NCBI GenBank assembly: GCA_029266615.1
Contig: JAQSWN010000002.1
Location: 1 to 64,000 of the forward strand
Length of the DNA: 64,000 nt
Direction: 5' to 3'
Origin: Polyangiaceae bacterium
GTDB taxonomy: Bacteria; Myxococcota_A; Polyangia; Polyangiales; Polyangiaceae
Shown: piece after piece, positions 3 to 29,620 of the stretch
Position numbering within the stretch: position 1 is the first letter of the stretch
Layout of the letters: each line of letters opens with the position of its first letter
Notes under the pieces: model-generated
What the model saw: the letters and a program-made list of their open reading frames with translations, nothing else
Databases searched by the model: none
What the model was told of the DNA's origin: nothing
Made by a program: the position numbers and the translations under genes

Positions 3-1376
3 ATGAGCGAAGGCAAACTCGACCGCGGCGTGCTCGAAGGGCCGGTGCTGCCCGCCTTCCTGTACTATGCCGTGCCGTCCTTAATCGGTCTGATCGCCAT
101 TTCCACGGCCAGCATCGTGGACGGCCTGTTCGTGAGTCGCTTCGTCGGCCCGGAAGCGCTCGCGGCCGTCAATCTGCTGCTGCCCTACTTCACCTTGCTG
201 TTCGGCTTGTCGCTCATGCTCGCCCTGGGCGGCTCCGTGCAGGCGGGGCGTAGCTTGGGAGAGGGGAACGTCGCCGCCGCGAGCGCGACCTTCAGCAAGT
301 CGGTCGTGGCGGTAGCGCTTCTGGCCGCGGGTGCGGCTCTCTTCGGCAACCTGTTCGATAGCGCGCTGTTTCGCTTGCTCGGGGCGCCGGAGTCACTGTT
401 CGGCCTCATGCGCGCGTACTTCAGCGTCATTTCCGGGGCGATGGTGGTTCAGTTGACCACGCTCGTCGTCTACTACTTCGTTCGGTTGGATGGCAGGCCC
501 GTCTTGGCGACGGCTGCGGTCGTGACGGGGGCGCTCACCAACATGGCGCTCAACGCGCTGCTCGTCGGCCATCTGGGCGCGGGCGTTGGCGGCGCCGCGT
601 ATGCGACGCTGCTTGCGCAAGTGCTGCAGCTCGGCGTGCTCCTCACGCATTTTGCGTCGGCTCAGTCCAAGCTACGCTTCGGGCTCAAGCAACAGCGGTG
701 GGGTTCGCTGTGGCGCTCGGCCTACGGCGGCTTGTCGGAGCTCGTCAACGAGCTATCCGTGGGGGCTTTGGCGCTGGTGATCAACTGGCTGTTGGTGAGG
801 CGTATCGGGGTGCACGGCGTCGCGGCCTTCGCAGTCGTCAACTACGTCACCTTCGCAAGCTTGATGGTGTATTACGGCGCTGCAGACGCGCTGCACCTTT
901 TGGTGAGTCAAAACCTGGGGGCGGGTAGGCAAGAGAGGGCCCGCGCATTCCTGCGCTGCGCGCTTTTGGCCGTGGCCGGGGTCGGGGTCCTGCTTTCAAG
1001 TGCCCTCCTCGCTTTCGGTGACCACTGGGTTTCCCTTTTCGTGAAGGAAGCCAAACCTGAGGTGAGCCAGGCCGCGGCCGCATTTCTGCGAGTGATCTGG
1101 CCGCTCTTGCTGTTCAACGGAGCGAACGTGGTGTTCACGGTCTACCTGGCCGCCTCGCGCCGCCCCGGTGCGGCGAGCGTGCTGGCGCTGTCGCGCACCT
1201 TGGTGTTGCCGGCCGCGTTCTTGCTGGCGCTGGCGCTCCTTGCGCCGTCGCTGCCGTTCCTTTCCGCGTTGCCCCTGGCGGAGGTCGTTACGTTCTTGCT
1301 CGGGCTTGCGCTGCTGATGCGGCGCGAGCCGGCTCCGGCGCCACTGACCGCGACGGAAGGAGCGGCCACACCGTGA
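3..1376 (+). CDS. MATE-family efflux transporter, first gene of siderophore operon
   Basis: Predicted inner-membrane multidrug/toxin-extrusion antiporter of 457 aa with about twelve hydrophobic segments, the usual size for MATE proteins. The first helix region carries the family's typical VDGLFVSRFVG-like stretch near residue 40, and a second homologous half begins near residue 230. Its stop overlaps the next start (GTGA at 1373), so it is translationally coupled to the NIS synthetase genes. I infer that it exports the siderophore made by the following six genes; the petrobactin exporter known in Bacillus belongs to another family. Only two bases precede the ATG, so an upstream promoter, a Fur site or an earlier start cannot be judged. 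Confidence 0.85.
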   Translation: MSEGKLDRGVLEGPVLPAFLYYAVPSLIGLIAISTASIVDGLFVSRFVGPEALAAVNLLLPYFTLLFGLSLMLALGGSVQAGRSLGEGNVAAASATFSKSVVAVALLAAGAALFGNLFDSALFRLLGAPESLFGLMRAYFSVISGAMVVQLTTLVVYYFVRLDGRPVLATAAVVTGALTNMALNALLVGHLGAGVGGAAYATLLAQVLQLGVLLTHFASAQSKLRFGLKQQRWGSLWRSAYGGLSELVNELSVGALALVINWLLVRRIGVHGVAAFAVVNYVTFASLMVYYGAADALHLLVSQNLGAGRQERARAFLRCALLAVAGVGVLLSSALLAFGDHWVSLFVKEAKPEVSQAAAAFLRVIWPLLLFNGANVVFTVYLAASRRPGAASVLALSRTLVLPAAFLLALALLAPSLPFLSALPLAEVVTFLLGLALLMRREPAPAPLTATEGAATP

Positions 1377-3178
1377 ACGAAAGCCTGATTTTCCTAGCCG
1401 AGCAGGCGTGCTTCGACGCGTTCGTCACCTGCTACCTCCAAGAGCTGGGCGCGGGGGTTTGGCACCGCGCCGAGGATTTTCGCCGCGAGCGCGATCCAGA
1501 TCGCGCGCTGGGGAGCGAGCTCGTGGTGGAGCTGTACCTGCCGCGCGAGGAGCAGCGGCTCGCGCTGGAGGTCGTGTACCGCTCGGCGGTTGGCCGCCAC
1601 CGGCTCGGGGCGGTGCGCGTCCATTGCAACGGCCGATGGCGCGACGCGGATCGGCTGCAGGTCGTGCTCTTGCTCATCCGCGAGCTCTACGGAGCTCGCG
1701 CCAGCGTGGACGCGACCGCGCGCGCCCACGAGCTGGAGCTACTGCTGCGCTACGTGCAAAGCCAACAGCTGATGGCCCGTTACCTCGAAGCGAGGGCTCA
1801 TGATCGGCGGTTGGACTCGGATCGTTTCATCGACGGCGAGCAGTCAATGCTTTACGGCCATTGGCGGCATCCGACTCCGAAGAGCCGCCAAGGCATGACG
1901 GAGTGGCAGCACGACAGCTTCGCGCCCGAGCTCCGGGGGCGCTTTCAACTCCACTACTTCGCGGTCGCGCGCGCGCTGGTAGTGCAGCAGTCGGCCTTGC
2001 CCCAGACGACCGAAGAGATGCTGTCGCGCCTCATTTCCTCCGACGCTCAGGCGCAGCGAGCGCTCCGGGAGGCGAACGGCCGGGATGAGGTGCTGGTACC
2101 CGTTCATCCACTGCAAGTGGATTGGCTGCTCCACCAGCGCCACGTGAGAGGCTGGCTCGCCGATGGCTTGCTGCGAGAAGTGGGGCGCCTCGGGCCGCGC
2201 TTCACGGCCACGTCTTCCGTTCGCACCGTGTACAGCGAAGACGCGGAGTGGATGGTCAAGCTGTCCATCCCGGTCCGCATCACGAACTCTTTGCGCTTCA
2301 ACCGGCGTGACGAGCTGCCAGCGGGAGTGAGCATGGCACGCCTATTTGCCTTGCTCGGCGAGCGTGCAGGGTTTCACTGCATCGCCGACCCGGCCTACCT
2401 GACGCTTTCGAGCCCGGGCGATGGCGAATCAGGGTTCGAGCTGCTGCTCCGCGAAAATCCGTTCCGTCGCGGGCGGGACCGCGGCGTCTACTGCGTCGCT
2501 GCGTTGGTGCAAGAGGCGCTGCCGCACCGCGCCTCGCGACTCCGCACGGTGCTCGAGGGGCTCGCGCTCACGGAGGGGCGCGACGTGACGGACGTGAGCT
2601 TCGACTGGCTCCTGCGCTACGTGCGCGCCGTCATCGAGCCGCTCATTCGCCTCTACGACGAGCACGGCATCGCGCTGGAAGCGCACCAGCAAAATAGCTT
2701 GGTGGACTTGCAGGCGGGCTACCCGCGTTCGTGCCACTTTCGCGACAACCAGGGCTACTACCTCTCGAATCAGCACCGCTCGCGCTTGGTCGCGCTTCTC
2801 CCGGAGCTCTTGCAGCGGCCGGAGCTGTTCTTCGACGACGCCCTGATCCAAGAGCGGTTTGCTTACTACCTGCTCAGCAATCACCTGTTCGCGGTGGTGC
2901 AGCGGCTCGGTGCGGACGGCCTGCTGCACGAGGACGTGGCGCTCTCCGTAGTCAAAAGGTGCTTCGAGCAGCTGCGCGCGGAGCTGACCGGACCGGGACG
3001 GCAGTTGGTAGCAGGCTGGCTCGAGCACCCGCAGCTTCCGTACAAGGCCAACTTGCTGACTCGCGTTCACGACGTGGACGAGCTCACGGCCGAGAACGAG
3101 CAGGCGGTCTACGTCCGCATACCGAACCCATTGGGCCGCCCTCTGCAACCGCTACCTCGGGAGCTAGAAGTTGCCTGA
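1373..3178 (+). CDS. asbA: NIS siderophore synthetase, IucA/IucC family (AsbA-like)
   Basis: 601 aa, the normal length for an IucA/IucC enzyme with a C-terminal FhuF-like part. Motifs seen are HPLQVDWLL near residue 244, the KLSIPVRITNSLR nucleotide-binding stretch near 305, and EAHQQNSL near 438, which holds the conserved His and Gln-Asn. Such enzymes adenylate a carboxylate of citrate and join it to an amine; in petrobactin synthesis AsbA joins citrate and spermidine. The GTG start overlaps the MATE stop by 4 nt, and its own stop overlaps the next gene by 8 nt. The AsbA assignment rests on gene order and neighbours more than on residue-level distinction from AsbB. Confidence 0.85.
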   Translation: MNESLIFLAEQACFDAFVTCYLQELGAGVWHRAEDFRRERDPDRALGSELVVELYLPREEQRLALEVVYRSAVGRHRLGAVRVHCNGRWRDADRLQVVLLLIRELYGARASVDATARAHELELLLRYVQSQQLMARYLEARAHDRRLDSDRFIDGEQSMLYGHWRHPTPKSRQGMTEWQHDSFAPELRGRFQLHYFAVARALVVQQSALPQTTEEMLSRLISSDAQAQRALREANGRDEVLVPVHPLQVDWLLHQRHVRGWLADGLLREVGRLGPRFTATSSVRTVYSEDAEWMVKLSIPVRITNSLRFNRRDELPAGVSMARLFALLGERAGFHCIADPAYLTLSSPGDGESGFELLLRENPFRRGRDRGVYCVAALVQEALPHRASRLRTVLEGLALTEGRDVTDVSFDWLLRYVRAVIEPLIRLYDEHGIALEAHQQNSLVDLQAGYPRSCHFRDNQGYYLSNQHRSRLVALLPELLQRPELFFDDALIQERFAYYLLSNHLFAVVQRLGADGLLHEDVALSVVKRCFEQLRAELTGPGRQLVAGWLEHPQLPYKANLLTRVHDVDELTAENEQAVYVRIPNPLGRPLQPLPRELEVA

Positions 3179-4916
3179 AGCGCGCGTCCTCCGACAGTTG
3201 GTCGAAGCGCTGCTGTTCGAGCGCATCGCTTCGTGGCCGAACGAGCGCTTTTCCCAGCATGCAAGCGCAGCTCGGGAAATCTTATTCGTCGTGGGAGACG
3301 GCTCATACCGTTGTCGCGGGCGCGTGACCGCGTTTGGGCGCGTGCGCCTGGTCGAGGGCTCGGTGCGGAAGGTGGTGCATGGGGCGCCGCAGGAAACCAG
3401 CTGGCAGGAGGTGCTCGCGGACGTGCCGGGCGACGCGGCCGTCAAAGCCACGATCGCGGAGGAGCTCGACAACACCGCGCGGCTCTGTCGCTGGAACGAA
3501 CTGCACCTGCCGAGTCTGCGCCGCAACCGCCGCGGCTTGCCCTACGAGGAGCTCGAGAGCTTGCTCCACGAGGGGCATCCGTACCACCCGTGCTTCAAGG
3601 CTCGCGCCGGCTTCTCGCTCGCGGATCACGCGGCGTATGGACCCGAAGCCGGACAGACCTTCGAGCTTCGATGGCTCGCGGTGCAGCGCGCTCGGTTGAC
3701 TCAGACGTTTCCGACGAACGAAGCAGGGCACTTTCGAGCGGAGCTGGGCGCGTCGGGCTACACGTTCTTGGTCGACGCGCAGCGCCGGTGCGGCGCAGAA
3801 GTAGCGCAGTACGGGCTACTGCCGGTGCATCCCTGGCAGTGGCAAAAGCTGGCTGGCTCACCCTCGCTCGCGGCCGCGCTGGCCCGCCGCGAGCTGGTCG
3901 ACCTGGGCGTCGCCCCAGGGCGCTACCGCGCCTCGCAGTCCTTGCGAACGCTGCTCCCGGTTTCGAGCGCCGCGTCGCACCTCAAGCTGCCCTTGGCGGT
4001 GCGCGTCTCTTCGTCCTTGCGCACGCTGCCGGCCGAGACGGTCAAGGCCGCGCCAGCCCTGTCCGCTTGGCTCCAGTCGCTGGTCGCCTCCGACCCGTTC
4101 TTCGACGAAGTGTCGGGAGCGGTGGTGCTCGCCGAGCATGCCAGCAGCTTGTACGAGCCCGCCGCCGACGTTCCGGAGCTAGACGGCAACTTGGCCGCGA
4201 TCTGGCGAGAGCCGGTAGGGCCGCGACTCCGAGGAGGCGAGCAAGCCATCCCTTTCAACGCGCTGTTCGCGGTGGAGCACGACGGGCGCCCCTACGTCGA
4301 CGCTTGGCTCCAGCGGCACGGAACGGCCGCTTGGGTCATGCAACTGCTGCGCGTCACGCTCTTGCCTTTGTGGCGGTTGCTCTCGCACCACGGGGTGGCC
4401 CTGGAATCGCACGCGCAGAACCTGCTGCTCCTGCATCGTGACGGCTGGCCCACGCGGGTCGCGCTACGCGACTTCCACGACAGCGCAGAATACGTGCCGA
4501 GCTTCTTGGCCGACCCTAGCCGCGTTCCGCTTTGGGCCGAGCTGGACACGCGGTTCGCGGCGGCGCCCGCCGGTCGTCACTACGCCATGCAAAGCGTGGT
4601 GGAGCTGCGCGATCTATTCATCGACGCGGTCCTGATTTTCAACCTCAGCGAGCTGTCGTGGCTGCTGGAGCAGAGCTGCGGTTTCGCGGAGGGTGAGTTC
4701 TGGAAGCTCGCTCGCGAGGTGCTTTGGGGCTACGCCCGCTCTCGCTGGAGCGACCCGGAGCGGGAGGCGGCGTTGCGACTGCACGAGCCCTTCGTTCACA
4801 CCGAGAGTCTCTTCGAGGCCCGGTTGCAGAAGCCCTCCGCGCCCTTGCGTCATCACCAAGTGCCCAGCGCGCTTTACGACCACGCCCAGAGGGAGATCCA
4901 TGCTGGCCATCAATGA
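3171..4916 (+). CDS. asbB: NIS siderophore synthetase, IucA/IucC family (AsbB-like)
   Basis: Second IucA/IucC-type synthetase, 581 aa, starting with TTG inside the end of the previous gene. It shows LPVHPWQWQKL near residue 219, KLPLAVRVSSSLRTL near 268, and ESHAQNLLLLHRDGWPT near 409 followed by a LRDFHDS stretch. It is clearly diverged from the preceding paralogue, as expected for two enzymes acting on different substrates. In the petrobactin pathway AsbB adds the second polyamine arm to citrate. It overlaps the ligase gene by 17 nt. The family is certain; the exact substrate is inferred from the asb-like order of the whole operon. Confidence 0.85.
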   Translation: MPEARVLRQLVEALLFERIASWPNERFSQHASAAREILFVVGDGSYRCRGRVTAFGRVRLVEGSVRKVVHGAPQETSWQEVLADVPGDAAVKATIAEELDNTARLCRWNELHLPSLRRNRRGLPYEELESLLHEGHPYHPCFKARAGFSLADHAAYGPEAGQTFELRWLAVQRARLTQTFPTNEAGHFRAELGASGYTFLVDAQRRCGAEVAQYGLLPVHPWQWQKLAGSPSLAAALARRELVDLGVAPGRYRASQSLRTLLPVSSAASHLKLPLAVRVSSSLRTLPAETVKAAPALSAWLQSLVASDPFFDEVSGAVVLAEHASSLYEPAADVPELDGNLAAIWREPVGPRLRGGEQAIPFNALFAVEHDGRPYVDAWLQRHGTAAWVMQLLRVTLLPLWRLLSHHGVALESHAQNLLLLHRDGWPTRVALRDFHDSAEYVPSFLADPSRVPLWAELDTRFAAAPAGRHYAMQSVVELRDLFIDAVLIFNLSELSWLLEQSCGFAEGEFWKLAREVLWGYARSRWSDPEREAALRLHEPFVHTESLFEARLQKPSAPLRHHQVPSALYDHAQREIHAGHQ

Positions 4917-6147
4917 TCTGAAGTTTTCTCGCGACTATTTCGACGCGCGCTTCCTCGCGCTTTCCCGCTTGCCCCACCTGAAGCAGAGCGGCGGCCAACG
5001 TTATGCGGTGTGCTTGCAAGAGCCGGAGCGGTGGCTCGCGCTAGGCCTCTACCTGCGCCAGGTCGGCGCGTCCGTCGCGCCCCTGCACCCCAGCACGCCG
5101 CTCGAAGCAGCCAAGCGGCTCGCGAAGCGCATGCGCTGCAGCCAGCTGATCTTTCATGACGAGGCGCAGAGTCTCGCGCTGGAAGACGGCGCGCGAGACG
5201 ACACGGGCTTACTCGTGCAGCTCAGCTCCGGAACCACGGGCGAGCCCAAGAGCATCGAGCGCACTTGGGCCTCGGTAGACACGGAGGTTTCGAGCTACGT
5301 GGAAGCCTTGGGCGCGCTCGGGGAGCACACGCCACTGTTGGCTTGCCCGGTGACTCACTCGTACGGACTCATCAGCGGGGTGCTCTCCGCCCTGCATCGC
5401 GGCGTCGAGCCGGTCGTGTTGACCAACATCAACCCGAAGTACGTGCTGCGCCGCGCCGTAGGGCAAGAGCGCACGCTTCTCTACGCCTCGCCGACGCTGC
5501 TGAACGTGCTGGTGCGGCTGTTGCCGGAGGGCGATCGCCTCGGCACGGTCATGACCTCCGGCGCGCCCTTGCGCGGCGCCTGGTTCGAGGAGCTGCGCCG
5601 TCACTCCTCCCGCGTCATGCAGCAGTATGGCTGCTCCGAATTTGGCTGCATTTCGCTCAATTTGGAGACTCGGTTCGCGGAGGAGATCGGCGCCCCGTTG
5701 CGACACCTAGACGTCACGGCGGGTAGCGCGAAGGACGCCTTGGAAGAGATCCGCGTTCGTGCGGGGAGCCGCTTCGTGAGCACGAAGGACTTGGGGTACT
5801 TCAACCAGAGGGGATTGTGCTTCGTCTCACGTGTGGACGACACCATCAACGTGGCTGGCATCAACGTGTACCCGCGAGAGGTAGAGGAAGTGGTCCTAGA
5901 GCTCGGCGGCGTGGAGGAAGCGGTCGTGTACAAGCGGAGCGACGCTTACGCCGGCGAACGGGTCTGCCTCAAATTCGTGGCGAAGCGTGTCATCGACGCC
6001 GCGGAGGTGCGCCGCTTCTGCGCGGCGCAGCTCACCCCCTTTGCGGTGCCGCTCGAGGTCCACCAAGTAGCGGAAATCCCCAAGCTGGAGAACGGCAAGG
6101 TCAACCGCCGTCAGCTCGCGGAAGCGGCGGAAGAGCGGCAGCCATGA
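4900..6147 (+). CDS. asbC: Aryl-AMP ligase (AsbC-like, 3,4-dihydroxybenzoate activating)
   Basis: 415-aa member of the acyl/aryl-adenylating (ANL) superfamily. The phosphate-binding motif LSSGTTGEPKS lies near residue 108, YGCSEFGC near 245 is the A5-type motif, and KLENGKVNRRQL at the C-terminus carries the conserved catalytic Lys. It is shorter than typical stand-alone ligases because the N-terminal part is reduced, which is also true of AsbC. The ATG at 4900 was chosen because GGGAGA stands 6-10 nt upstream and the product then begins like the family. Expected role: adenylate 3,4-dihydroxybenzoate and load it on the adjacent carrier protein. The stop overlaps the carrier gene (ATGA). Confidence 0.86.
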   Translation: MLAINDLKFSRDYFDARFLALSRLPHLKQSGGQRYAVCLQEPERWLALGLYLRQVGASVAPLHPSTPLEAAKRLAKRMRCSQLIFHDEAQSLALEDGARDDTGLLVQLSSGTTGEPKSIERTWASVDTEVSSYVEALGALGEHTPLLACPVTHSYGLISGVLSALHRGVEPVVLTNINPKYVLRRAVGQERTLLYASPTLLNVLVRLLPEGDRLGTVMTSGAPLRGAWFEELRRHSSRVMQQYGCSEFGCISLNLETRFAEEIGAPLRHLDVTAGSAKDALEEIRVRAGSRFVSTKDLGYFNQRGLCFVSRVDDTINVAGINVYPREVEEVVLELGGVEEAVVYKRSDAYAGERVCLKFVAKRVIDAAEVRRFCAAQLTPFAVPLEVHQVAEIPKLENGKVNRRQLAEAAEERQP

Positions 6148-6425
6148 CGCGCGCGGAGCTCGTCGCCATCATTCGCCTCGTCCTGAGCGAGAAGATGGCG
6201 CTGCCGAACTTGCAGAGCTTCAGCGAAGACGCCCTCCTCAACGAACAGCTCTGCCTGGACTCCGTGCTGATGCTGGAGCTTCTGGTCCACTTGGAGCTGG
6301 ACCACGGGCTCGCGCTGCCGGAGGAGGCGGCGCTGCAGAAGCAGGCGGGGACGGTGGGCTCCTTGGCGGAATTTCTGCTCGCGCAACGCGCGGTCAGCGC
6401 TGCCGCGCAGGGAGGTGCCACGTGA
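6144..6425 (+). CDS. asbD: Aryl carrier protein (AsbD-like)
   Basis: 93-aa acyl/aryl carrier protein. The phosphopantetheine attachment motif is LDSV near residue 37 (CLDSVLMLELLVHLE), inside the expected helical context, with an acidic second half. The start ATG overlaps the ligase stop (ATGA) and its stop overlaps the next GTG (GTGA). It would hold 3,4-dihydroxybenzoate as a thioester for AsbE. A phosphopantetheinyl transferase is not encoded in the window, so one must act from elsewhere. Confidence 0.85.
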   Translation: MTRAELVAIIRLVLSEKMALPNLQSFSEDALLNEQLCLDSVLMLELLVHLELDHGLALPEEAALQKQAGTVGSLAEFLLAQRAVSAAAQGGAT

Positions 6426-7426
6426 TCCGCGTCCACTGCTTCGTCAGTTGTGTGTGCGAGGCTCTCAAGCGAGCTCCCGGCGTCGACCAGCGCCCCTACT
6501 ACTTCGGGGTGTGGGACGCGCCCTTCGACGTGACGAGCCGCTTCGAGCTTTCGTACCACGGTGAAGCCGGCTACCAGCAGGCGTTCTTTCGCGAGTGGTA
6601 CGAGCGGCTCTACGGCGCGCGCATCCGCCAGTGGTACGACCATGACGCCCCTCGCGAGGAGAACGTCCGGCGCCTCGAGCGGCTAGTCGTGGATCGCCCA
6701 GCGGGACGCAACATCCTCGTCATGCTGGACTTGTTTCGGCTGCCGGAGCGAGAGAACAAGTTCAATCAGAACCCGTTTCCCCACATCGTGATGCTTCAGG
6801 CCACGGCCGACCCCGAGCAGTGGCGAATGCAAGATCCTGATTTTCGCTGGGAGGGGAAGCTATCCAAAGCGCGCATCTTGGATGCGGTGCGGAGCCCCGC
6901 CGTGGCGGGCGGCTTCCTGTTGGACGAAGGGGCGCTGCGCCCCGCCGAAGATGCCGTGGTTCGCCAGTACTTCGCTACCTGCATGAGCTACCCGCACAAT
7001 CCATTCACGCATGCGCTGCGCGGGATCGTGCAGGCTCATTTGGACGGGCGAGCGCCGGGCGGAGTACCGGGGCTCAACCAGGCGTTGCGACAGATCCCGG
7101 TGCTGGCGATACGCAAGTACGCTTACGAGCATGGCTTTGCGTTCTTCTGGCGAGCGCTCGCGCTGGACGTGCCGGAATTCGAGCGCTGGTGCGACGAGGT
7201 GGACGAGCTGGTCAAGGGCTTCACCGCCGTCCAATACCGCGCGATGAAGCTGGCCATCTCCGGTGACTTCAGCCTCGCCACGGGCGTGATGGAGCTATTG
7301 GACCAGCAAGACGCGCGGGAGCGGCGCATCAAGCAGCGCCTGTTGGAAGCGTACGACGAGTGGTGCTCGGACCTGGACGCCCCGGTGCGACCCTTGCGCG
7401 TGAACCCGAACGGAGTCGTCTCATGA
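6422..7426 (+). CDS. asbE: Petrobactin biosynthesis protein AsbE-like
   Basis: 334 aa, close to the length of Bacillus AsbE, a family without a common fold name. The N-terminus (HCFVSCVCEAL, YYFGVWDAPFDV) has Cys and aromatic residues that look conserved and would suit catalysis of thioester transfer. In the known pathway AsbE takes the 3,4-dihydroxybenzoyl group from the carrier protein and condenses it with spermidine. The gene starts at GTG overlapping the carrier stop and ends overlapping the AsbF-like start (ATGA). Assignment rests on size, position and N-terminal pattern; an alignment would settle it. Confidence 0.78.
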   Translation: MIRVHCFVSCVCEALKRAPGVDQRPYYFGVWDAPFDVTSRFELSYHGEAGYQQAFFREWYERLYGARIRQWYDHDAPREENVRRLERLVVDRPAGRNILVMLDLFRLPERENKFNQNPFPHIVMLQATADPEQWRMQDPDFRWEGKLSKARILDAVRSPAVAGGFLLDEGALRPAEDAVVRQYFATCMSYPHNPFTHALRGIVQAHLDGRAPGGVPGLNQALRQIPVLAIRKYAYEHGFAFFWRALALDVPEFERWCDEVDELVKGFTAVQYRAMKLAISGDFSLATGVMELLDQQDARERRIKQRLLEAYDEWCSDLDAPVRPLRVNPNGVVS

Positions 7427-8280
7427 ACCTGGCCATTTGTACCATTTCGTTCCGCCACCACCTCATCTCCATCGAGGAGGTCGCTCGCTGGGCTCAGGCT
7501 CACCGCTTTCAAGGCATCGAGCTTTGGGGGGCGCACGCGCGCAGTTTGGCGGGCGACGAGAAGTACGGCGCCGAGTGGCTAGCCGAGTATGGGCTCGCCG
7601 TGCTCATGCTCAGTGACTACCTCCCTCTGGACGCGCCGCTCGACGAGCTGTGGGCCAAATTGGAGCAGCTCTCCGCCTTGGCGCGCCGCTGGGAAACCCG
7701 CAAGCTCCGCACCTTTGCCGGGCGGCTCGGTAGCGCGGAGACGAGCGCGGCCGCGCGCGCGCGCGTCGTGGAAAGACTACGCGGCGCCTGCCAGCGCCTG
7801 GCCGACCGCGGACAGCTCTTACTGGTGGAGACGCACCCGAGCACGTTGGCGGACACCGCAGAGTCCACCTTGCAGCTCCTGGCAGAGGTCGATCATCCGG
7901 CGCTTCGCGTCAACTTCGACGTTCTGCATGTTTGGGAGGCCGGCGACGACCCCCTCGGCGCACTGGCACGACTGCGCCCCCACGTCTCGCATTTGCACTT
8001 GAAGAACGTGAGCCGGCGCGAGCGTCTAGACGTCTTTGCGCCGGCCAACGTGTACTCTGCGGCCGGCTCCCGCGTTGGCATGGTGCCGCTGTTCGAGGGC
8101 GTATTCGATTACCAATCATTCTTGGCCGACCTCCCGGGGGATTCGCTCTGGGACGCTTCGCTCGAGTGGTTCGGGGACGACGTGAAGGGCACCCTGAGCC
8201 GCGACCGGCGCGCCATCGAGCTGCTGGCCGGTGGGGCGGGCGTCGCACAACCGGTCCGGGGCCAGCGCTTGACCGCCTGA
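7423..8280 (+). CDS. asbF: 3-dehydroshikimate dehydratase (AsbF-like)
   Basis: 285-aa TIM-barrel enzyme of the xylose-isomerase-like superfamily. AsbF hallmarks are visible: CTISFRHHLIS at the N-terminus, GIELWG near residue 27, LSDYL near 64, VETHPST near 127 (metal Glu), NFDVLHVWEAGDDP near 160 (metal site), HLHLKN near 189, GMVPLFEG near 217 and ASLEWFG near 242 (metal Glu). It converts the shikimate intermediate 3-dehydroshikimate into 3,4-dihydroxybenzoate, the unusual catechol of petrobactin. This is the most diagnostic gene of the cluster, since ordinary catecholate siderophores use 2,3-dihydroxybenzoate. The start is coupled to AsbE by ATGA. Confidence 0.9.
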   Translation: MNLAICTISFRHHLISIEEVARWAQAHRFQGIELWGAHARSLAGDEKYGAEWLAEYGLAVLMLSDYLPLDAPLDELWAKLEQLSALARRWETRKLRTFAGRLGSAETSAAARARVVERLRGACQRLADRGQLLLVETHPSTLADTAESTLQLLAEVDHPALRVNFDVLHVWEAGDDPLGALARLRPHVSHLHLKNVSRRERLDVFAPANVYSAAGSRVGMVPLFEGVFDYQSFLADLPGDSLWDASLEWFGDDVKGTLSRDRRAIELLAGGAGVAQPVRGQRLTA

Positions 8281-8296: not shown

Positions 8297-8315
8297 GAAA
8301 ACGCGAATCGTTCTC
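8297..8315. promoter_or_regulatory. Fur-box-like palindrome upstream of TonB receptor
   Basis: GAAAACGCGAATCGTTCTC matches the 19-bp Fur consensus GATAATGATAATCATTATC at 13 of 19 positions by hand count, with the AATC core and both flanks kept. It lies in the short gap between the asbF-like stop and the receptor start, 18 nt before the TTG. A near copy sits at 12008-12026. Predicted to repress the receptor gene when iron is sufficient. Confidence 0.6.
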
Positions 8316-8332: not shown

Positions 8333-10486
8333 TTGCGCACACAGCTTTTCGTCGCCACCGCGGCCGCGGCGGCTTTTTTCTCGCCTAAAATCAGCATCGC
8401 GCAGTCGAACGACGCCGCCGTGGCGCCGCCGCCGCAGGACGCGCCGCCGGTCGAGATAACGGTCTCGGGGCAGGGCGGGGGCGGGCGGCGGCTGCAGCAG
8501 TCCGCGGAGGCGGTCCATGTGGTGGAGCTGCGCCGCGCCAAACAGCAATCGGCGGACTTGGGAGAGGTATTGGCGCGCACCCAAGGCGTCTCGGTTCGGC
8601 GCGATGGAGGGCTGGGCTCCGCCTCGCGCTTCTCGCTGAACGGCCTGTACGACACGCAGATTCGCTTCTTCGTGGACGGCGTGCCGCTGGAGCTCGCAGG
8701 GTATCCATTCGGCATCGCCAACGTTCCGGTCAACCTCATCGAGCGCGTCGAGATCTATCGGGGGGTGGTGCCGATTCGTTTCGGAGCGGACGCGCTGGGC
8801 GGCGCGGTCAACCTCGTGACCGACGAAGGCCTCTACCCGTTCGGGAGCGCGAGCTACCAGGTTGGCTCTTTTGGGACCCACCGGCTCAACGTGGCGGGGC
8901 GGCAGTACCACGAGCCGAGCGGCGCGTTGGTGCGCGCGCACGCCTTTTTGGACAGCGCCAACAACGACTACGAAGTGGACGTCCGCGTCTCCGGGCCGAC
9001 GGGCGAGCTCTCCGACGCGAAAGTACGTCGATTTCACGATGACTACCGCGCCTATGGCGGCAGCGTGGAGGCCGGCATCGTGGAGCGATCCTGGGCCAAG
9101 CGCTTGCTCGTTCGAGGCTTCGCGTCGGGCTACGACAAGGAGCTGCAGAACAATCCGGTCATGACCGTCCCGTACGGTGAGGTGCGGTACGACGAGACCG
9201 TGCATGGCGCAAGCGCGCGCTACGACGTCGACCTGCCCTCCGGCTTCAGCCTTCAGACTCTGGCCAGCTACTCGCGTCGGGCCACGGAGTACCTGGATCA
9301 AAGTCCGTGGGCCTACGACTGGTATGGCCAACGAGTCTTCCGCAGGCCGAGCGCGGGAGAGGTGGACGGGCGCCCCCACGACCAGACCCTGTGGCAGGAT
9401 GGCTACTTCGCTCGCGCGCTCCTCGGCTGGAGCCCCAACTCGACTCACGCGCTACGCGCTTCGTTCACTCCCCAGTACGCCTCACGCGCGGGGGAAGATC
9501 GCGCGCTCGTGAGCAGCCTCGCGCGCGACCCCCTCACCGCCAAGCGCGAGCTATTCAGCCTCGTGAGTGGATTGGAGTACGAGCTGGCGCTGCTCGAGGG
9601 ACGACTGTCCACAGTCTTTTTCTTCAAAGACTACTACTACCGGGCCACGACGGATGAGGTGGTGCCGGGCAATATCTTTCTCGAACGCACCGCCGGCGAC
9701 CACTCGCAGGGGGCCGGCTTCACCTCGCGCTACCGCTTCACGCCCTGGCTCCTCGCCAAGGCATCCTACGAGCGTGCCACGCGCCTGCCCAGCTCGAGCG
9801 AGCTGTTTGGTAACGGCGTGCTCATTCGCGAGAACGTGAGCCTGGAGCCGGAGGTCAGTCACAACGCGAACGTAGGCCCTCGTCTGGAGCTGAAGCGACA
9901 GAGCTTTGGCGATCTGACTTTGGACGTGAACGCGTTTTGGCGCGGCAGTGACCGCCTCATCGTGCTGCTCGGAGCCGAGCAGGCGTTTCGGTACGAAAAC
10001 CTCTACGCAGCGCGCGCACTCGGGCTCGAAAACGCGGGCAATTGGCTTTCGCCGGGGCGCCTCGTGAGCCTGGAAGGCAGCTTGACCTGGCTCGATTTGC
10101 GCAACGAATCGACCGAGGGGACGTTTGCGCGCTTCGAGGGGGATCGCATCCCGAACCGGCCGTACTTGTTCGGCAGTTGGGGCGCTCGCCTGCGCTTGCA
10201 GGGGGTGACGGACGCGCGCGACACCGTCGAGCCATTCTACTACGGGCGCTACGTGCACGGCTTCTTTCGTGGCTGGGAGAGCGCGGGCGATCGCGACTAC
10301 AAGCAGCGCCTCGACTCGCAAGTCACCCACTCGGTCGGCGCTACTTGGAGCGTGATGCGCGACGGGCTTCGCGCCACGTCCACGTTCGAGATCGACAACG
10401 TCACGGACGCAAAGCTCTTCGACAACTTCGGGCTGCAGCGGCCGGGCCGGGCGTTCTACCTCAAGGTTACGGGCGAGCTCCGTTGA
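8333..10486 (+). CDS. TonB-dependent outer-membrane receptor, siderophore type
   Basis: 717 aa. A Sec signal peptide occupies about residues 1-24, then a short linker, a plug domain about 50-165 (GEVLARTQGVSVRRDGG, then FFVDGVPLEL and IERVEIYRGVVPIRFGADAL, both classical plug motifs) and a beta-barrel to the C-terminus. I chose the TTG at 8333, with AGGA about 8 nt upstream, because it gives a complete signal peptide. It would import the ferric form of the siderophore made upstream; the Fur-like box directly before it agrees. It is not overlapped with the biosynthetic operon, so it can be transcribed separately. Confidence 0.9.
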   Translation: MRTQLFVATAAAAAFFSPKISIAQSNDAAVAPPPQDAPPVEITVSGQGGGGRRLQQSAEAVHVVELRRAKQQSADLGEVLARTQGVSVRRDGGLGSASRFSLNGLYDTQIRFFVDGVPLELAGYPFGIANVPVNLIERVEIYRGVVPIRFGADALGGAVNLVTDEGLYPFGSASYQVGSFGTHRLNVAGRQYHEPSGALVRAHAFLDSANNDYEVDVRVSGPTGELSDAKVRRFHDDYRAYGGSVEAGIVERSWAKRLLVRGFASGYDKELQNNPVMTVPYGEVRYDETVHGASARYDVDLPSGFSLQTLASYSRRATEYLDQSPWAYDWYGQRVFRRPSAGEVDGRPHDQTLWQDGYFARALLGWSPNSTHALRASFTPQYASRAGEDRALVSSLARDPLTAKRELFSLVSGLEYELALLEGRLSTVFFFKDYYYRATTDEVVPGNIFLERTAGDHSQGAGFTSRYRFTPWLLAKASYERATRLPSSSELFGNGVLIRENVSLEPEVSHNANVGPRLELKRQSFGDLTLDVNAFWRGSDRLIVLLGAEQAFRYENLYAARALGLENAGNWLSPGRLVSLEGSLTWLDLRNESTEGTFARFEGDRIPNRPYLFGSWGARLRLQGVTDARDTVEPFYYGRYVHGFFRGWESAGDRDYKQRLDSQVTHSVGATWSVMRDGLRATSTFEIDNVTDAKLFDNFGLQRPGRAFYLKVTGELR

Positions 10487-10549: not shown

Positions 10550-11929
10550 TTACTTGACGAGGATGGCCGGGCCCGGAAAGCCAGGCAGCTCGAGCGCGCC
10601 GGTGCGCTCACCCGCGACGGACACGTCGTGATACTGGCCCGCGGCCAAGTCGCCCGCGACCGTGATGATGAACGGCGTGTTGTTGCCGCTCACGCGGGCG
10701 CTGAAGGCCAAGCCGTAAGCAGACTGCAAATCGATGCCGTCTACGGGCTGCACGTCCACGGCTTCGTCGCCCAGCGTGAGGCGGTTCAACTCCCAGGCGG
10801 CGCGCGTGTGGGCCTTGGCGGAGTTGGCTAGCGTCAGCGGCTCGCCCGCGTACTTGAGCACGAACGCTTCGTCCCCGGCGCCCTGCATGAGGCCGCCGGT
10901 GGGGGCTCCGGCGACGTCACTCAGATCGACGTAGTAGTCTTGGTCGAACTCGCTCTCGCCGGTTCTGATGCGGATGATGCAGCTGGCGGCAGCGGGTTCG
11001 CCCGCGGCGCCGACCTCCACCACTGCCGCTTGCGCGGGGTGGCTGGCGAGGTAGAGGTTCTGCTCACTGTCCACGGCTTTGAAAGCGATGTTGCCGCAGC
11101 GCTCGTCGTCCACGTACTCCACCTCGTCCGTGAGCGTGTCGATGATGGCGACGCGGGTGAGCAGAGCCGCCGTGTCGTCCGCTCGATAGTAACGGGCGGA
11201 GAGCAGCACGCGGTCTCCGTCGCGGTACGCGAACGTCAGGCTCGGGAAGAGCTCGCCTTCCGCGAAACCTTCCAGCGTGAAGGCGCCGATGGTCTTCATC
11301 GTCTGCGGGTTCCAGATCACGACCTGGCGCGTCTTGGCATCGATGAAGTAGGCGCGATCTTGCGCCAAGAAGTGGAACGGATCTCGTCCGCCCAAGCCGC
11401 TGGCGATACCGTACTGAGCCAGCCCCATCTCGCCGTTCTTCTCGAGCTCGTTCGCGTCGTTCAGCACCCAACGCTCGATGACCGCGGAGCTCCCGCGACC
11501 GACGTAGACCACGCCGTTGCCGGGGCTTGCGTAAGACATGTCGCCCGGGAATTCCATGGCCTTCGAAATGTCGACCGTGCCATCGGCACTGATGTCGTCC
11601 GTCACCGAGAGGTAGCCGATGTATTCGTCCTGCACGGTCACGTAGTAGCCGACGACGTAGATGCCTTCGGCCATGGGGATCGGTGCGACGCCTCCCGCGC
11701 CGCTGCCGCTGCCGGCAACGGGCTCTTCACCCCCGTTGCTGCTTCCGCCTTTGCTCGAAGAGCCGCTCGTGCTCGCTGACCCACCTTTGCCGGCTGAGCC
11801 GCCCGAGCTTTCACCGGCCTGGTTGTCCGCGGGCGCCCCGTCGTCGTCGTCGTCGCCGCACGCCACCACGGACCCCAACACCATGGCCGCGCACAGCACG
11901 AGCCAATGAGATTGCTGACTTCTGAACAT
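10550..11929 (-). CDS. Fur-linked lipoprotein, probable beta-propeller (DUF4374-like)
   Basis: 459 aa. The ATG at 11929 has GGAGAAAG just upstream and gives a lipoprotein signal (MFRSQQSHWLVLCAAMVLG, lipobox VVAC) followed by an Asp run and a Gly/Ser linker to about residue 75. The rest consists of repeating beta-strand-rich stretches (IYVVGYYVTVQDEYIGYL, GVVYVGRGSSAVIERWVL, RQVVIWNPQTMKTIGAF), like propeller lipoproteins found beside TonB receptors. A Fur-like box lies 79 nt upstream of the start. It probably acts at the outer membrane in siderophore uptake or ligand capture; no activity can be read from sequence. A longer frame upstream lacks a signal peptide and would cross the Fur box. 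Confidence 0.72.
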   Translation of the reverse strand: MFRSQQSHWLVLCAAMVLGSVVACGDDDDDGAPADNQAGESSGGSAGKGGSASTSGSSSKGGSSNGGEEPVAGSGSGAGGVAPIPMAEGIYVVGYYVTVQDEYIGYLSVTDDISADGTVDISKAMEFPGDMSYASPGNGVVYVGRGSSAVIERWVLNDANELEKNGEMGLAQYGIASGLGGRDPFHFLAQDRAYFIDAKTRQVVIWNPQTMKTIGAFTLEGFAEGELFPSLTFAYRDGDRVLLSARYYRADDTAALLTRVAIIDTLTDEVEYVDDERCGNIAFKAVDSEQNLYLASHPAQAAVVEVGAAGEPAAASCIIRIRTGESEFDQDYYVDLSDVAGAPTGGLMQGAGDEAFVLKYAGEPLTLANSAKAHTRAAWELNRLTLGDEAVDVQPVDGIDLQSAYGLAFSARVSGNNTPFIITVAGDLAAGQYHDVSVAGERTGALELPGFPGPAILVK

Positions 11930-12007: not shown

Positions 12008-12026
12008 GAAAATGCGAATCATTCTC
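12008..12026. promoter_or_regulatory. Fur-box-like palindrome upstream of propeller lipoprotein
   Basis: GAAAATGCGAATCATTCTC matches the Fur consensus at 15 of 19 positions by hand count and differs from the box at 8297-8315 at only two positions. It is 79 nt upstream of the ATG at 11929, a normal operator distance. This ties the lipoprotein to the iron-starvation regulon. Confidence 0.68.
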
Positions 12027-14203: not shown

Positions 14204-15367
14204 GTGCAGCGCGTTCATGGATCGGTCTCGGCTCTGTGCTCGGTGTTGGCCGGCATCGGCGCCTCGTGGCTGCTCGGTGCATGCTCGGGTAACGAAGCTC
14301 CCGCCGAGTCGGATGGGGCGATCGCCGGCAAGCCGTCGCTCGACTTGGACGTGAGCGGCGGCGGCAAGAGCGGCTCGGGCTCCGGTATCACCGCCAACGG
14401 CTGCGAGGTGATGACTGACGACGCGGTGTGCGCCGCGCAAGCCTACGAAGGCGAGGCCATCCCCCTCGACATCTACATCATGTTCGACCAGTCGGGCTCG
14501 ATGTTGAACGACGTCGGCGGCCTCACGCGCCTCGAGGCGGTACAGCGGGCCACCAGCGCGTTTCTAAGGGACGAGGCGAGCGCCGCGATCCGGGTGGGGG
14601 TCGGATACTTCGGTTTTCAACCGATTGGGCAGACATCCTGCTCCGCGGAGGATTTTGCGAGCCCCACCGTCCCGGTCACGCTCGACCATGAGGAAGTCCT
14701 GCGCTCCCTGTATGCCCGAGAGCCAACCGGAGAAACGCCCACCGGCGCGGCGATTCGGGGCGCGTGTAGCTACGCCCAGGAGTGGAAGCGCGCCAATGTT
14801 GGTCACTCGGTGGTGGTGCTGCTGCTCACGGACGGCGAGCCCAAGGCTCCGATGAGCTGTGCTTCCGGGGCGTGCTGTCCCACGCTCGACGACGCGGTGG
14901 AGGCTGCCGGCGAATGCCGGCGTGGCGACGCTGGGGTCGATACGTACGTGCTCGGAGTCGGTCCGTTCCTCGACAATCTCCAGCAGATCGCGCAGGCGGG
15001 CGGTACCGAGCAGGCGTACCTCATCGGCGACGAGGACGTCGAAAGCAAGGTCCTGGCCGCCCTCAATTCGATCCGCGGCGCGGCCAGCATCCCGTGTGAG
15101 CTTCAGCTGCCGGAGCCCACGGGCGGCGCGAAGCTCGACTACGGGTTCGTGAACGTTGCTTACCAGGACTCGAGCTGCGTGCTCTCGACGATCTACAACG
15201 TGCCGAGCGAAGCGAGCTGCGACGCCGCGGAAGGCGGCTGGTACTACGACGACCCGTCCGCGCCCACGTCCGTCAAGCTGTGCGGCGCGAGCTGCGACGT
15301 CGTCTCTGCTCCCGGCGGGCGCCTCGCGTTCACCGTCGGCTGTGAGACGAAAGTGTTGGTCAAGTGA
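14204..15367 (+). CDS. VWA-domain lipoprotein 1
   Basis: 387 aa, GTG start with an AGGGGA-like site close upstream. The signal peptide ends in the lipobox LLGAC, followed by a short linker and a von Willebrand factor A domain at about residues 85-300. The metal-ion-dependent adhesion site is complete: DQSGS (DxSxS), the Thr in GETPTGAA, and the Asp in LLTDGEP. A Cys-containing C-terminal module ends with GGWYYDDPS and CGASC. Predicted surface-exposed metal-dependent binding protein. First of four consecutive lipoprotein genes on this strand; the 37-nt gap to the next suggests cotranscription. Confidence 0.82.
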   Translation: MQRVHGSVSALCSVLAGIGASWLLGACSGNEAPAESDGAIAGKPSLDLDVSGGGKSGSGSGITANGCEVMTDDAVCAAQAYEGEAIPLDIYIMFDQSGSMLNDVGGLTRLEAVQRATSAFLRDEASAAIRVGVGYFGFQPIGQTSCSAEDFASPTVPVTLDHEEVLRSLYAREPTGETPTGAAIRGACSYAQEWKRANVGHSVVVLLLTDGEPKAPMSCASGACCPTLDDAVEAAGECRRGDAGVDTYVLGVGPFLDNLQQIAQAGGTEQAYLIGDEDVESKVLAALNSIRGAASIPCELQLPEPTGGAKLDYGFVNVAYQDSSCVLSTIYNVPSEASCDAAEGGWYYDDPSAPTSVKLCGASCDVVSAPGGRLAFTVGCETKVLVK

Positions 15368-15404
15368 GCTCGGACTCGAGGGTGCTCGTTAGAAAGGTGC
15401 AGAT

Positions 15405-16634
15405 ATGCGGTATTTTCGTCAATTCTCGCTGAGTGCGGCGGCGCTCTCGTTGAGCCTCTTTGGGTCTGCAGGCTGCGGGAACACCGAAGGGGGAGGGACA
15501 TCGCCCGGCTCCGGTAATGGTAATTCGCCCGGTAAAACCGGAGTGGCGGACGGGAGCGGGTGTGACAACGCTGCGGAATGCGCGAGCGGCCTCTGCCATG
15601 ACGGCCATTGCACGAGTGGGCCCAGTAGCGTCGCAACGAGCCCGGGCCCCCATTTCGATGGCGGAGGACCGAGCTCCCGTCCGCTGACCACCGGCTGTGG
15701 CCCGGGGACGGCCCCGCAATGCGGAGGCACGTGCGAGATGGCGGGCGGGGTTCCGGTGACGGTTCTCGCCCCGCCGGCCACCATCTGTTACGCGGGCGCT
15801 GGCGACCTCACCCCCGATGATCCGAGCGGCGTCATCGAGCAAGTCATCGAGACAATCGACGGCAAGACGTACCTGCACCTGCGCGTCACGTTCGACCCGA
15901 GCTTCGTCGACAACACCTACGGCGCCAATGCTTCCGCAGGCTGGGCGAACCGGATGATGGCGCGGCCGAAGGGTGAGATGCCCGGCGGTCCGATGGGCGG
16001 CAAAGCGGGGCCGATGGGGGGCAAGGCTGGTAAGGCCGCGCACACTTTCGACGACCTGCTGGGGAGCGACCACGTGGAGCTCGTCCTCGTCGATGGCAAG
16101 GGCAACACGGTGCTGGACTTCAAGGTGGACTACGTCTCGGAAAACCCCGCGGCGCCCTGTGGTTACGGCACGCTCGGCGTCAGCGGCGGCGAAGGCAAGA
16201 TGCTCCAAGGCGATGCGTCGGCGATCGTTGGGGTCGCAACGTCGATCGATCGCAACTTGAACGGCTGCGGCTACTGTCTCACGACGGATTCACCGGCGAC
16301 CGACGCCGCTTTCACGGCTGACGCCGCCGCGCCCAACTGGGACTACCGAGTCATCTACGAGGTTTGGATCGATTTCTCGGTATTCAAGGGTCATGGCTTC
16401 GGGGGCGCGTACATCCCCCAAGTGCATGCCTCGCCGTCCATGGCGAGCACCAATACCATCGACGTCGATCCCGATCCGTGCCCGCCGGACTGGGACACGC
16501 CGTACTGCCCTCCCAGCGTGATCGAGGAGGGTGGCAATTGCTTCGACACGCCGATTGGTGACGGGGGGTGTCCGGAAGGCACCGTCCCTGATATCAAGAA
16601 CGAAGGTCAGAGCTGCGTGCCGGTCAACTACTGA
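15405..16634 (+). CDS. Exported lipoprotein in VWA cluster, no recognised domain
   Basis: 409 aa, ATG with GAAAGG upstream. The lipoprotein signal ends GSAGC. The N-terminal part has a small Cys module (CDNAAECASGLCHDGHC), a Pro/Gly/Ser stretch and CGPGTAPQCGGTC. A short internal duplication PMGGKAG occurs twice near residue 200. The remainder is rich in aromatic and acidic residues (HVELVLVDGKGN, YRVIYEVWIDFSVF) and looks like a beta-sandwich, followed by a Cys/Pro-rich end. I do not recognise the fold. Its place between VWA proteins suggests that it is a ligand or partner of them at the cell surface. Confidence 0.65.
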   Translation: MRYFRQFSLSAAALSLSLFGSAGCGNTEGGGTSPGSGNGNSPGKTGVADGSGCDNAAECASGLCHDGHCTSGPSSVATSPGPHFDGGGPSSRPLTTGCGPGTAPQCGGTCEMAGGVPVTVLAPPATICYAGAGDLTPDDPSGVIEQVIETIDGKTYLHLRVTFDPSFVDNTYGANASAGWANRMMARPKGEMPGGPMGGKAGPMGGKAGKAAHTFDDLLGSDHVELVLVDGKGNTVLDFKVDYVSENPAAPCGYGTLGVSGGEGKMLQGDASAIVGVATSIDRNLNGCGYCLTTDSPATDAAFTADAAAPNWDYRVIYEVWIDFSVFKGHGFGGAYIPQVHASPSMASTNTIDVDPDPCPPDWDTPYCPPSVIEEGGNCFDTPIGDGGCPEGTVPDIKNEGQSCVPVNY

Positions 16635-16646
16635 GACGGTGGGCCC

Positions 16647-17891: not shown

Positions 17892-17897
17892 GGAAAG

Positions 17898-29415: not shown

Positions 29416-29620
29416 GCTACACCCTAAGTCTCGGCGAAAAACGAGCGCAGACCTGGCCGTCACCAACTCAACCAGCGCCCTGACCGACTCGACGTGCACC
29501 GCAAGCAACCAGCTGGCTGAGTCACGCGCTTCGGCGACTGAATTCACAAGTTAGGGACCGCCGCCCCAACAAGCAAGGGCATGGGACAAATGATGTCAGC
29601 GCCAACGAACCGCCGCTAAA

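What the first reader, a model, noticed from the sequence alone, without database searches (positions are those of the whole stretch)
3..8280. Complete petrobactin-type biosynthetic operon outside Bacillus, with its own MATE exporter
Seven genes in strict overlap encode a MATE exporter and AsbA-F homologues in the Bacillus order. The AsbF-like gene carries the diagnostic metal-site motifs, which points to 3,4-dihydroxybenzoate rather than the 2,3-isomer. No NRPS is present, so the product should be a citrate/polyamine 3,4-catecholate. Myxobacteria are known mainly for NRPS catecholates (myxochelins), so a petrobactin-like system in this lineage, with a different type of exporter, may be undescribed.
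Basis: partly seen in the sequence, partly recalled or inferred. Interest (0 to 1): 0.85.

Follow-up and report, generated by a model that had tools for sequence, protein, structure and literature searches.

The report
Petrobactin-type siderophore operon in myxobacteria
A bacterium from the predatory myxobacteria carries the genes to make, export and recapture a petrobactin-like iron scavenger, a system catalogued so far mainly in Bacillus and proteobacteria, here sitting beside a receptor of a myxobacterial kind.

Summary
Window 3-8280 holds MATE-asbA-B-C-D-E-F, all six junctions overlapping by 4-17 bases. Each Asb protein matches its proper family or nearest relative, and the AsbF metal site is intact. 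The system is larger than reported: a TonB receptor (8333-10486, MxcH family) and a lipoprotein (10550-11929, minus strand) follow. The two best Fur-box-like sites in all 64 kb lie just upstream of these two genes. The same gene set recurs in two related genomes; in one (G309) it is rearranged and contains a carboxyspermidine dehydrogenase/decarboxylase-like pair. It is rare: 3 of 108 genomes of the family, own genome included. Most likely it is an iron-repressed, NRPS-independent system making petrobactin or a close analogue. The polyamine is open: none of the spermidine routes searched was found in the window's genome, which has a deoxyhypusine-synthase-like gene of a family that includes homospermidine synthases. 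The MATE exporter is no novelty: PMC5596346 notes MATE genes near the petrobactin operon of Marinobacter. A published census of asb clusters lists no Myxococcota (PMC8822346). New member of a known kind, in a phylum not listed there.

The parts
3..1376 (+). MATE-family transporter, probable exporter of the siderophore
   Evidence: PF01554 E 7.9e-34; 76% identical to the copy in L005, about 47% to that in G309 and 43% to that beside asb in Photobacterium jeanii; only distantly like the second MATE of the window at 51217-52659 (best E 0.023)
1373..3178 (+). AsbA-type NIS synthetase
   Evidence: PF04183+PF06276; matched in 64 of 64 asb loci, 37-50% identity in the 63 outside L005
3171..4916 (+). 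AsbB-type NIS synthetase
   Evidence: best solved relative is petrobactin biosynthesis protein AsbB 3to3, E 2.9e-86
4900..6147 (+). AsbC-type acyl-AMP ligase
   Evidence: NF006167 PRK08308, 528.6 bits against cut-off 513
6144..6425 (+). AsbD-type aryl carrier protein
   Evidence: NF005798 'petrobactin biosynthesis protein AsbD' 78.1 bits, E 5.2e-22, under its cut-off of 100; no Pfam match; DS motif at residues 39-40 (sequence)
6422..7426 (+). AsbE-type transferase (DUF6005)
   Evidence: PF19468 E 3.7e-136; 45-53% identity in 58 of the 63 asb loci outside L005, 34-38% in five of Paenibacillus and Brevibacillus
7423..8280 (+). AsbF-type 3-dehydroshikimate dehydratase
   Evidence: 3dx5 AsbF E 5.1e-73; E136, H138, D166, H169, H192, K194, E248 invariant in 9 aligned AsbF proteins
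8297..8315 (+). Fur-box-like site upstream of the receptor gene, 13 of 19
   Evidence: second best site of the whole window; matching site at L005 11864
8333..10486 (+). TonB-dependent receptor of the MxcH (myxochelin receptor) family, without the first 93 positions of the model
   Evidence: NF038079 958.7 bits against cut-off 925
10550..11929 (-). putative lipoprotein with weak DUF4374 similarity (the longest ORF runs to 12073; start at 11929 chosen by likeness to L005)
   Evidence: PF14298 18.7 bits, under its cut-off of 25; 75% identical copy in L005, about 41% in G309 beside its asb-linked receptor
12008..12026 (-). Fur-box-like site upstream of the lipoprotein gene, 15 of 19
   Evidence: best site of the whole window; matching site at L005 15571

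Best explanation
This is an iron-regulated, NRPS-independent siderophore system of the petrobactin (asb) family in a myxobacterium, most likely of the family Polyangiaceae. AsbF turns 3-dehydroshikimate into 3,4-dihydroxybenzoate; AsbC activates it and loads it on AsbD; AsbE passes it to a primary amine of a triamine; AsbA and AsbB join two triamine arms to citrate (steps as established for the asb pathway; recalled). The MATE protein exports the product; the MxcH-type receptor, with the neighbouring lipoprotein as a possible helper, takes the iron complex back across the outer membrane. Fur represses the transcription units when iron is plentiful. Shown here: gene order, family membership, intact AsbF site, co-occurrence of exporter, enzymes, receptor and lipoprotein in three genomes of two genera, and Fur-like sites near these units. 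Inferred: enzyme activities, product, transport directions, regulation.
For: Family matches; AsbF site; operon overlaps. Same set in L005 (PMG_095, same genus) and, rearranged, in G309 (other genus): asbB end-asbC-D-E-F-CASDC-CASDH-MATE-asbA on contig C252; the asbA end (from residue 474, where the C252 match stops at 469), an MxcH-type receptor and the lipoprotein on contig C48. Fur-like sites: the top two of the window and the top sites of L005 and of L161 (16 and 14 of 19) fall upstream of MATE, receptor or lipoprotein. Tree: window+L005 sit with the other Gram-negative asb loci, support 100/99.
Against: No iron-siderophore ABC importer was found among the 38 window proteins scanned against Pfam (13 smaller or doubtful ORFs were not scanned), unlike Photobacterium, where ORFs that look like one by eye lie downstream of asb. 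AsbD scores under its model's cut-off. Two MATE genes were shown not to be needed for export in B. anthracis (PMC5596346). Shuffled sequence reaches 13 of 19 in 10-11 of 100 runs, 14 in 2 and 15 in 0-1, so single sites are weak; no site of 13 or more lies on G309's contig C252; the case rests on placement and recurrence. No chemistry exists. The genome's contamination estimate is 7%.
Confidence: 0.88

Rival explanations
1. The product is petrobactin itself (two spermidine arms).
For: All six asb genes in canonical order; the related G309 cluster carries a carboxyspermidine dehydrogenase/decarboxylase-like pair able in principle to make spermidine. Spermidine could also be taken up, for instance from prey (not tested).
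Against: In the window's genome G000 and in G422: no AdoMet decarboxylase (0 of 3 genomes with G309); no carboxynorspermidine decarboxylase match in G000 and one of 21.9 bits (cut-off 409) in G422 under its other handle G377; only one weak PF03435 match each (27.8 and 24.8 bits), that of G000 reading by eye as an N-acetyl-glutamyl-phosphate reductase. PF01564 (spermidine synthase) matches exist, four in G000 and three in G377, in very long or short frames and without a SpeD partner.
Confidence: 0.35
2. The product is a homospermidine analogue of petrobactin, like rhodopetrobactin in its backbone, made from homospermidine formed by the deoxyhypusine-synthase-like protein (SpeY type).
For: PF01916 protein in G000 and G422; none in G309, Photobacterium (G451) or Chenggangzhangella (G452); the WGK lysine and the E and W before it are kept (residue roles recalled); SpeY-type DHS homologues make homospermidine in bacteria (PMC9992855, PMC10407285, passages); rhodopetrobactin carries homospermidine (PMC7857480, passage); Myxococcus xanthus makes homospermidine lipids (PMC9548883, passage).
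Against: The best NCBIfam model, 'homospermidine biosynthesis protein', scores 106 bits against a cut-off of 450, hardly more than a deoxyhypusine synthase model at 105, so the activity is unproven; by eye, two other residues of the human enzyme's spermidine site (recalled) do not look kept; the gene is not near asb.
Confidence: 0.4
3. The MATE gene is a passenger or multidrug pump, and another pump exports the siderophore.
For: RND-type ApeX, not MATE, exports petrobactin in B. anthracis (PMC5596346, abstract and passages).
Against: It overlaps asbA in the window and, by coordinates, in L005; relatives of 43-48% identity lie beside asbA in G309 and Photobacterium jeanii, while the other MATE of the window is only distantly alike.
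Confidence: 0.15
4. The contig is a contaminant, not myxobacterial.
For: Genome contamination estimate 7.04%.
Against: Same order asb-receptor-lipoprotein-RNase D-like gene in L005, titled Myxococcales bacterium; MxcH over cut-off in 25 of 108 genomes of the family; window G+C 66.8%.
Confidence: 0.03

Closest known systems
asbABCDEF petrobactin cluster of Bacillus (and Marinobacter, Alteromonas)
   Same: six biosynthetic genes, same order as in Bacillales loci, intact AsbF site; MATE genes near the petrobactin operon are noted for Marinobacter (PMC5596346, passage)
   Different: 28-59% identity over the six proteins to the 63 asb loci outside L005 (B. anthracis, Marinobacter and Alteromonas proteins were not among them, apart from the solved AsbB and AsbF); MxcH-type receptor; no ABC importer found nearby
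fprA-c14010-asbABCDEF-fatBDCE of Sinorhizobium fredii (PMC8822346)
   Same: asb cluster assembled with an outer-membrane receptor in a Gram-negative host, iron-repressed there
   Different: receptor FprA, FatBDCE importer and RirA/FecI control there; MxcH-family receptor, MATE, no importer found and Fur-like sites here; FprA and MxcH were not compared directly
Petrobactin-like cluster of Epibacterium ulvae (PMC7989816)
   Same: carboxynorspermidine dehydrogenase and decarboxylase inside the siderophore cluster, as in G309
   Different: also arginine decarboxylase and agmatinase there; Roseobacter lineage; no such pair in the window's cluster
Myxochelin (mxc) system of myxobacteria
   Same: receptor of the MxcH family
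   Different: NRPS and 2,3-dihydroxybenzoate there (recalled); NIS synthetases and AsbF here
Rhodopetrobactin cluster of Rhodopseudomonas palustris
   Same: NIS, AsbF, citrate and 3,4-dihydroxybenzoate; possible homospermidine arm
   Different: its proteins were not compared here

Membership tests
petrobactin (asb) biosynthesis cluster | two IucA/IucC-type NIS synthetases of AsbA and AsbB types | tested here: met
   no solved AsbA exists among the hits, nearest solved is IucA
petrobactin (asb) biosynthesis cluster | AsbC ligase | tested here: met
   over its model cut-off
petrobactin (asb) biosynthesis cluster | AsbD carrier protein | tested here: inconclusive
   best match is the AsbD model (E 5.2e-22) but 78.1 bits against a cut-off of 100; position and DS motif fit
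petrobactin (asb) biosynthesis cluster | AsbE (DUF6005) | tested here: met
   E 3.7e-136
petrobactin (asb) biosynthesis cluster | AsbF dehydratase with intact metal site | tested here: met
   which residues bind metal is recalled
petrobactin (asb) biosynthesis cluster | product contains 3,4-dihydroxybenzoate, citrate and spermidine | not testable with these tools
   needs mass spectrometry
petrobactin (asb) biosynthesis cluster | host makes spermidine | tested here: inconclusive
   no complete route found in G000 or G422 among those searched; uptake not excluded
MxcH myxochelin receptor | score over the NCBIfam cut-off | tested here: met
   958.7 against 925, but the first 93 positions of the model are missing and the family's genomes hold several groups of such receptors
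MxcH myxochelin receptor | binds ferric myxochelin | not testable with these tools
   the name alone says so; ligand here more likely the asb product
SpeY homospermidine synthase (G000 C239, G422 C21) | over the model cut-off | tested here: not met
   106.4 against 450
carboxynorspermidine/carboxyspermidine dehydrogenase and decarboxylase (asb-linked pair of G309) | over the model cut-offs | tested here: not met
   379.6 against 409.05 and 452.1 against 800; the decarboxylase of the genome's other pair scores 511.6 against 409.05. Solved proteins named carboxynorspermidine or carboxyspermidine decarboxylase match at E 5e-121 to 6e-62, and a solved carboxyspermidine dehydrogenase at 1e-94, second to entries named saccharopine dehydrogenase

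The most novel reading that the evidence does not exclude
In Polyangiaceae the asb cassette with its MATE exporter has been plugged into the family's own MxcH-receptor/lipoprotein module, and the siderophore backbone follows the host's polyamine: a homospermidine petrobactin in the window's genus, against a spermidine or norspermidine one in G309, which carries a dedicated polyamine pathway inside the cluster.
Probability: 0.33. Interest if true: 0.55.

Novelty: new member of a known kind. Interest (0 to 1): 0.42.

Why it matters
It places a petrobactin-type system in Myxococcota, a phylum of micropredators whose widely conserved siderophore clusters are for NRPS myxochelins; a receptor from the myxochelin-receptor family beside a petrobactin pathway offers a clean test of how receptors are recruited to transferred siderophore clusters. 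The split in polyamine genes between two asb-bearing lineages makes it testable whether the host's polyamine sets the siderophore backbone.

Tried and rejected
Contamination: rejected on shared gene order with L005 and family-wide MxcH receptors. One or two acquisitions: undecided; G309 sits nearest Photobacterium in the quick tree (SH-aLRT 93, not starred), but one clade of window+L005+G309 is not rejected (p-AU 0.223). Receptor history: the asb-linked receptors of window/L005 and of G309 fall apart in the quick receptor tree, where the G309 row has a long branch; not tested further. Of 20 receptor neighbourhoods fetched, eight besides G309's L161 were looked at, by ORF previews only (L141-L144; L147, L149, L152, L157), and showed no clear siderophore cluster to my eye. 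Second, myxochelin-type pathway: no 2,3-DHB ligase near the cut-off (2 of 14 control genomes pass it), but no myxochelin producer was run as a positive control. Gammaproteobacterial sampling gave 1 of 369 genomes over cut-off, the Photobacterium genome used as centre, and one more below it, so it added no MATE comparison. Fur-like site between MATE and asbA of Photobacterium: 13 of 19, but that A+T-rich locus has at least six other such sites, so it says nothing. A 15-of-19 site also lies upstream of the MxcH-type receptor of G426, which has no asb (L143), so the site may belong to the receptor module as such. A structure job on the DHS-like protein was not finished at three collections and is not used. 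Searches (one base off; wrong frame) are not used. Several frames printed (among them L073, L075, L078, L096-L098, L100-L104) are clearly not the gene's frame and are not used.
Full report
What is there. The window begins at base 1 of contig C97 (102,326 bases) of an 8.9 Mb draft genome. Seven plus-strand genes, 3-8280, overlap at all six junctions (4, 8, 17, 4, 4, 4 bases). They are a MATE transporter and proteins of AsbA to AsbF type in that order. AsbB, AsbE and AsbF have unambiguous relatives: solved AsbB 3to3 at E 2.9e-86, DUF6005 at 3.7e-136, solved AsbF 3dx5 at 5.1e-73. AsbC passes the cut-off of its NCBIfam model; AsbD's best model is 'petrobactin biosynthesis protein AsbD', below its cut-off. 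AsbA has no solved orthologue among the hits but matches the AsbA-position gene of 64 of 64 asb loci found in named genomes.

AsbF. In an alignment of nine AsbF proteins from the window, L005, G309, Photobacterium, Chenggangzhangella and four Bacillota, E136, H138, D166, H169, H192, K194 and E248 are invariant; they align with E142, H144, D172, H175, H198, K200 and E253 of 3dx5 (counted from the alignment). That E, D, H and E bind the metal is recalled, not looked up. The inference to 3,4-dihydroxybenzoate is therefore good but not proven.

The system is larger than the finding. 52 bases after asbF starts a TonB-dependent receptor of the NCBIfam myxochelin-receptor family MxcH (958.7 bits, cut-off 925), then on the other strand a putative lipoprotein with sub-threshold DUF4374 similarity. 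A scan for the Fur consensus (recalled) puts its two best sites of the whole 64 kb at 12008 (15 of 19, upstream of the lipoprotein gene) and 8297 (13 of 19, upstream of the receptor gene). In L005 the best sites lie upstream of lipoprotein, receptor and MATE (14, 14 and 13 of 19). On G309's contig C48 sites of 16 and 14 of 19 lie at 422, in the last part of the open asbA frame and before the receptor ORF (first possible start 460), and at 4785, before the lipoprotein. On G309's contig C252 none reaches 13. Shuffles of L005 reach 13 or more in 10 of 100 and 14 in 2; shuffles of window 1-21000 reach 13 or more in 11 of 100 and 15 in 1. So the weight is in the recurrence at the same places. Fur control is an inference.

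Relatives in the phylum. DUF6005 occurs in 2 of 377 genomes sampled from the phylum and 3 of 108 of the family, counting the window's own in both. The three are the own genome, G422 (same genus; its contig C83 has the length of SECP01000048.1, so it is the named record behind L005, Myxococcales bacterium PMG_095; it also carries the handle G377, with equal contig lengths) and G309 (another genus). The other six genomes listed for the window's genus have none. The family includes single-contig genomes of 11-16 Mb; with the 16 Mb Minicystis of Polyangiaceae (PMC9765116, passage) this suggests Polyangiaceae, an inference. L005 has the same order MATE-asbA-F-receptor-lipoprotein-RNase D-like gene (the RNase D likeness of the window gene is 145.9 bits against a cut-off of 298.95). 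G309 has the set on two contigs: the end of asbB (44 residues, E 8.8e-4), asbC-D-E-F, a carboxynorspermidine decarboxylase-like and a carboxynorspermidine synthase-like gene, MATE, and asbA to residue 469 on C252; asbA from residue 474, an MxcH-type receptor and the lipoprotein on C48. That the two contigs adjoin is inferred from the split asbA. Exporter, enzymes, receptor and lipoprotein thus stay together through a rearrangement, which supports one working system.

Origin. A tree of joined AsbA, C, D, E, F segments (21 of 66 rows; AsbB left out because G309 has only its end) puts window, L005, G309, Photobacterium and Chenggangzhangella together (100/99) apart from the Bacillota sampled. Whether window and G309 share one acquisition is open (p-AU 0.223). 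MATE matches near asb occur in 2 of the 64 loci (L005 and Photobacterium), plus the window and G309; the other 62 show none at E 1e-5 within the stored flanks, some of which are short. PMC5596346 (passages) already notes MATE genes near the petrobactin operon of Marinobacter, and reports that a mutant of B. [quoted passage not shown] So the MATE neighbour is known, not a discovery.

The polyamine. AdoMet decarboxylase: 0 of 3 genomes (G000, G309, G422; 8 of 14 control genomes ring). Carboxynorspermidine decarboxylase model: two strong matches and one weak in G309, none in G000, one of 21.9 bits in G377/G422. PF03435: strong in G309 on C26 and C252, one weak match each in G000 and G422. PF01564, the spermidine synthase family: 4 matches in G000, 3 in G377, 1 in G309; those read in frame are MFS-like long proteins or short ones, and with no AdoMet decarboxylase they have no known partner. 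Deoxyhypusine-synthase family: one each in G000 and G422 (136 bits), none in G309, G451 or G452. In bacteria such homologues include SpeY homospermidine synthases (PMC9992855 and PMC10407285, passages). The protein here is far below the cut-off of the homospermidine model (106 of 450) and about as near a deoxyhypusine synthase model, so the assignment is a hypothesis. If right, the product would be a homospermidine petrobactin; rhodopetrobactin has that backbone (PMC7857480, passage), and M. xanthus makes homospermidine lipids (PMC9548883, passage). In G309 the asb-linked decarboxylase and dehydrogenase are 39% and 43% identical to the second pair on C26, consistent with dedicated copies. A carboxynorspermidine pair inside a petrobactin-like cluster has a precedent in Epibacterium ulvae (PMC7989816, section 8 read).

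Other siderophores. The 2,3-DHB-AMP ligase model is not reached in any of the three genomes (best 125.7 of 723.55 bits); no myxochelin producer was run as a control. No siderophore ABC importer was found among the 38 window proteins scanned with Pfam (18 of them also in NCBIfam); 13 of the 50 ORFs, mostly short or doubtful, were not scanned.

Literature. PMC8822346 (section 11 read) counts asbABCDEF in 3,462 genomes of Firmicutes, Gamma- and Alphaproteobacteria, Verrucomicrobia (2) and Actinobacteria (1), none named from Myxococcota. PMC8776838 (passages) names Gammaproteobacteria, Alphaproteobacteria and Bacilli; 'myxococc' does not occur in its main text. PMC12766979 on conserved myxobacterial clusters has no mention of petrobactin (term search in its main text). 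Searches for petrobactin with myxobacteria (8 papers, listing only) and for petrobactin or myxobacterial taxon names, two of six (30 of 693 papers listed, none of the 30 with petrobactin; the rest were not seen) gave no title reporting such a cluster; subscription journals and database annotations were not searched.

Verdict. Confirmed observation; interpretation right in its core, not in the exporter's novelty. A new member of the petrobactin kind in a phylum not listed in the census, with an MxcH-family receptor as its most distinctive verified feature and an unresolved polyamine as its most interesting open question.

Noticed in passing
L094 (G309 contig C252) 3764-6304: A diverged carboxynorspermidine decarboxylase-like and dehydrogenase-like pair sits inside the asb cluster of a related genus, 39% and 43% identical to the other pair of that genome on contig C26.
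   Followed up: partly
L145 7664-8629 and L146 7650-8615: A deoxyhypusine-synthase-like gene almost identical in two species of the genus (one residue differs in 321), although their six Asb proteins differ by 15-26%.
   Followed up: partly
family-wide: MxcH-type receptors form several groups in this family, some genomes holding three or more, often beside DUF4374-like lipoproteins and, in the eight neighbourhoods previewed, without a recognisable siderophore cluster.
   Followed up: partly
L149 10451-10975 and L157 9265-9789: Beside two of these receptors lies a gene that looks by eye like a Fur-family regulator; not scanned.
   Followed up: no
window 28204-29547: Protein with an Ig-like domain and an ice-binding-like domain (PF11999, E 1.7e-69).
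   Followed up: no
window 45698-47668: Protein with three DsbA/thioredoxin-like stretches, matching the Rcas_1661 family (seleno)lipoprotein model over its cut-off.
   Followed up: no
window 14204-19148: Four consecutive genes, three with von Willebrand A domains, two of those weakly like the gliding lipoprotein CglB.
   Followed up: no
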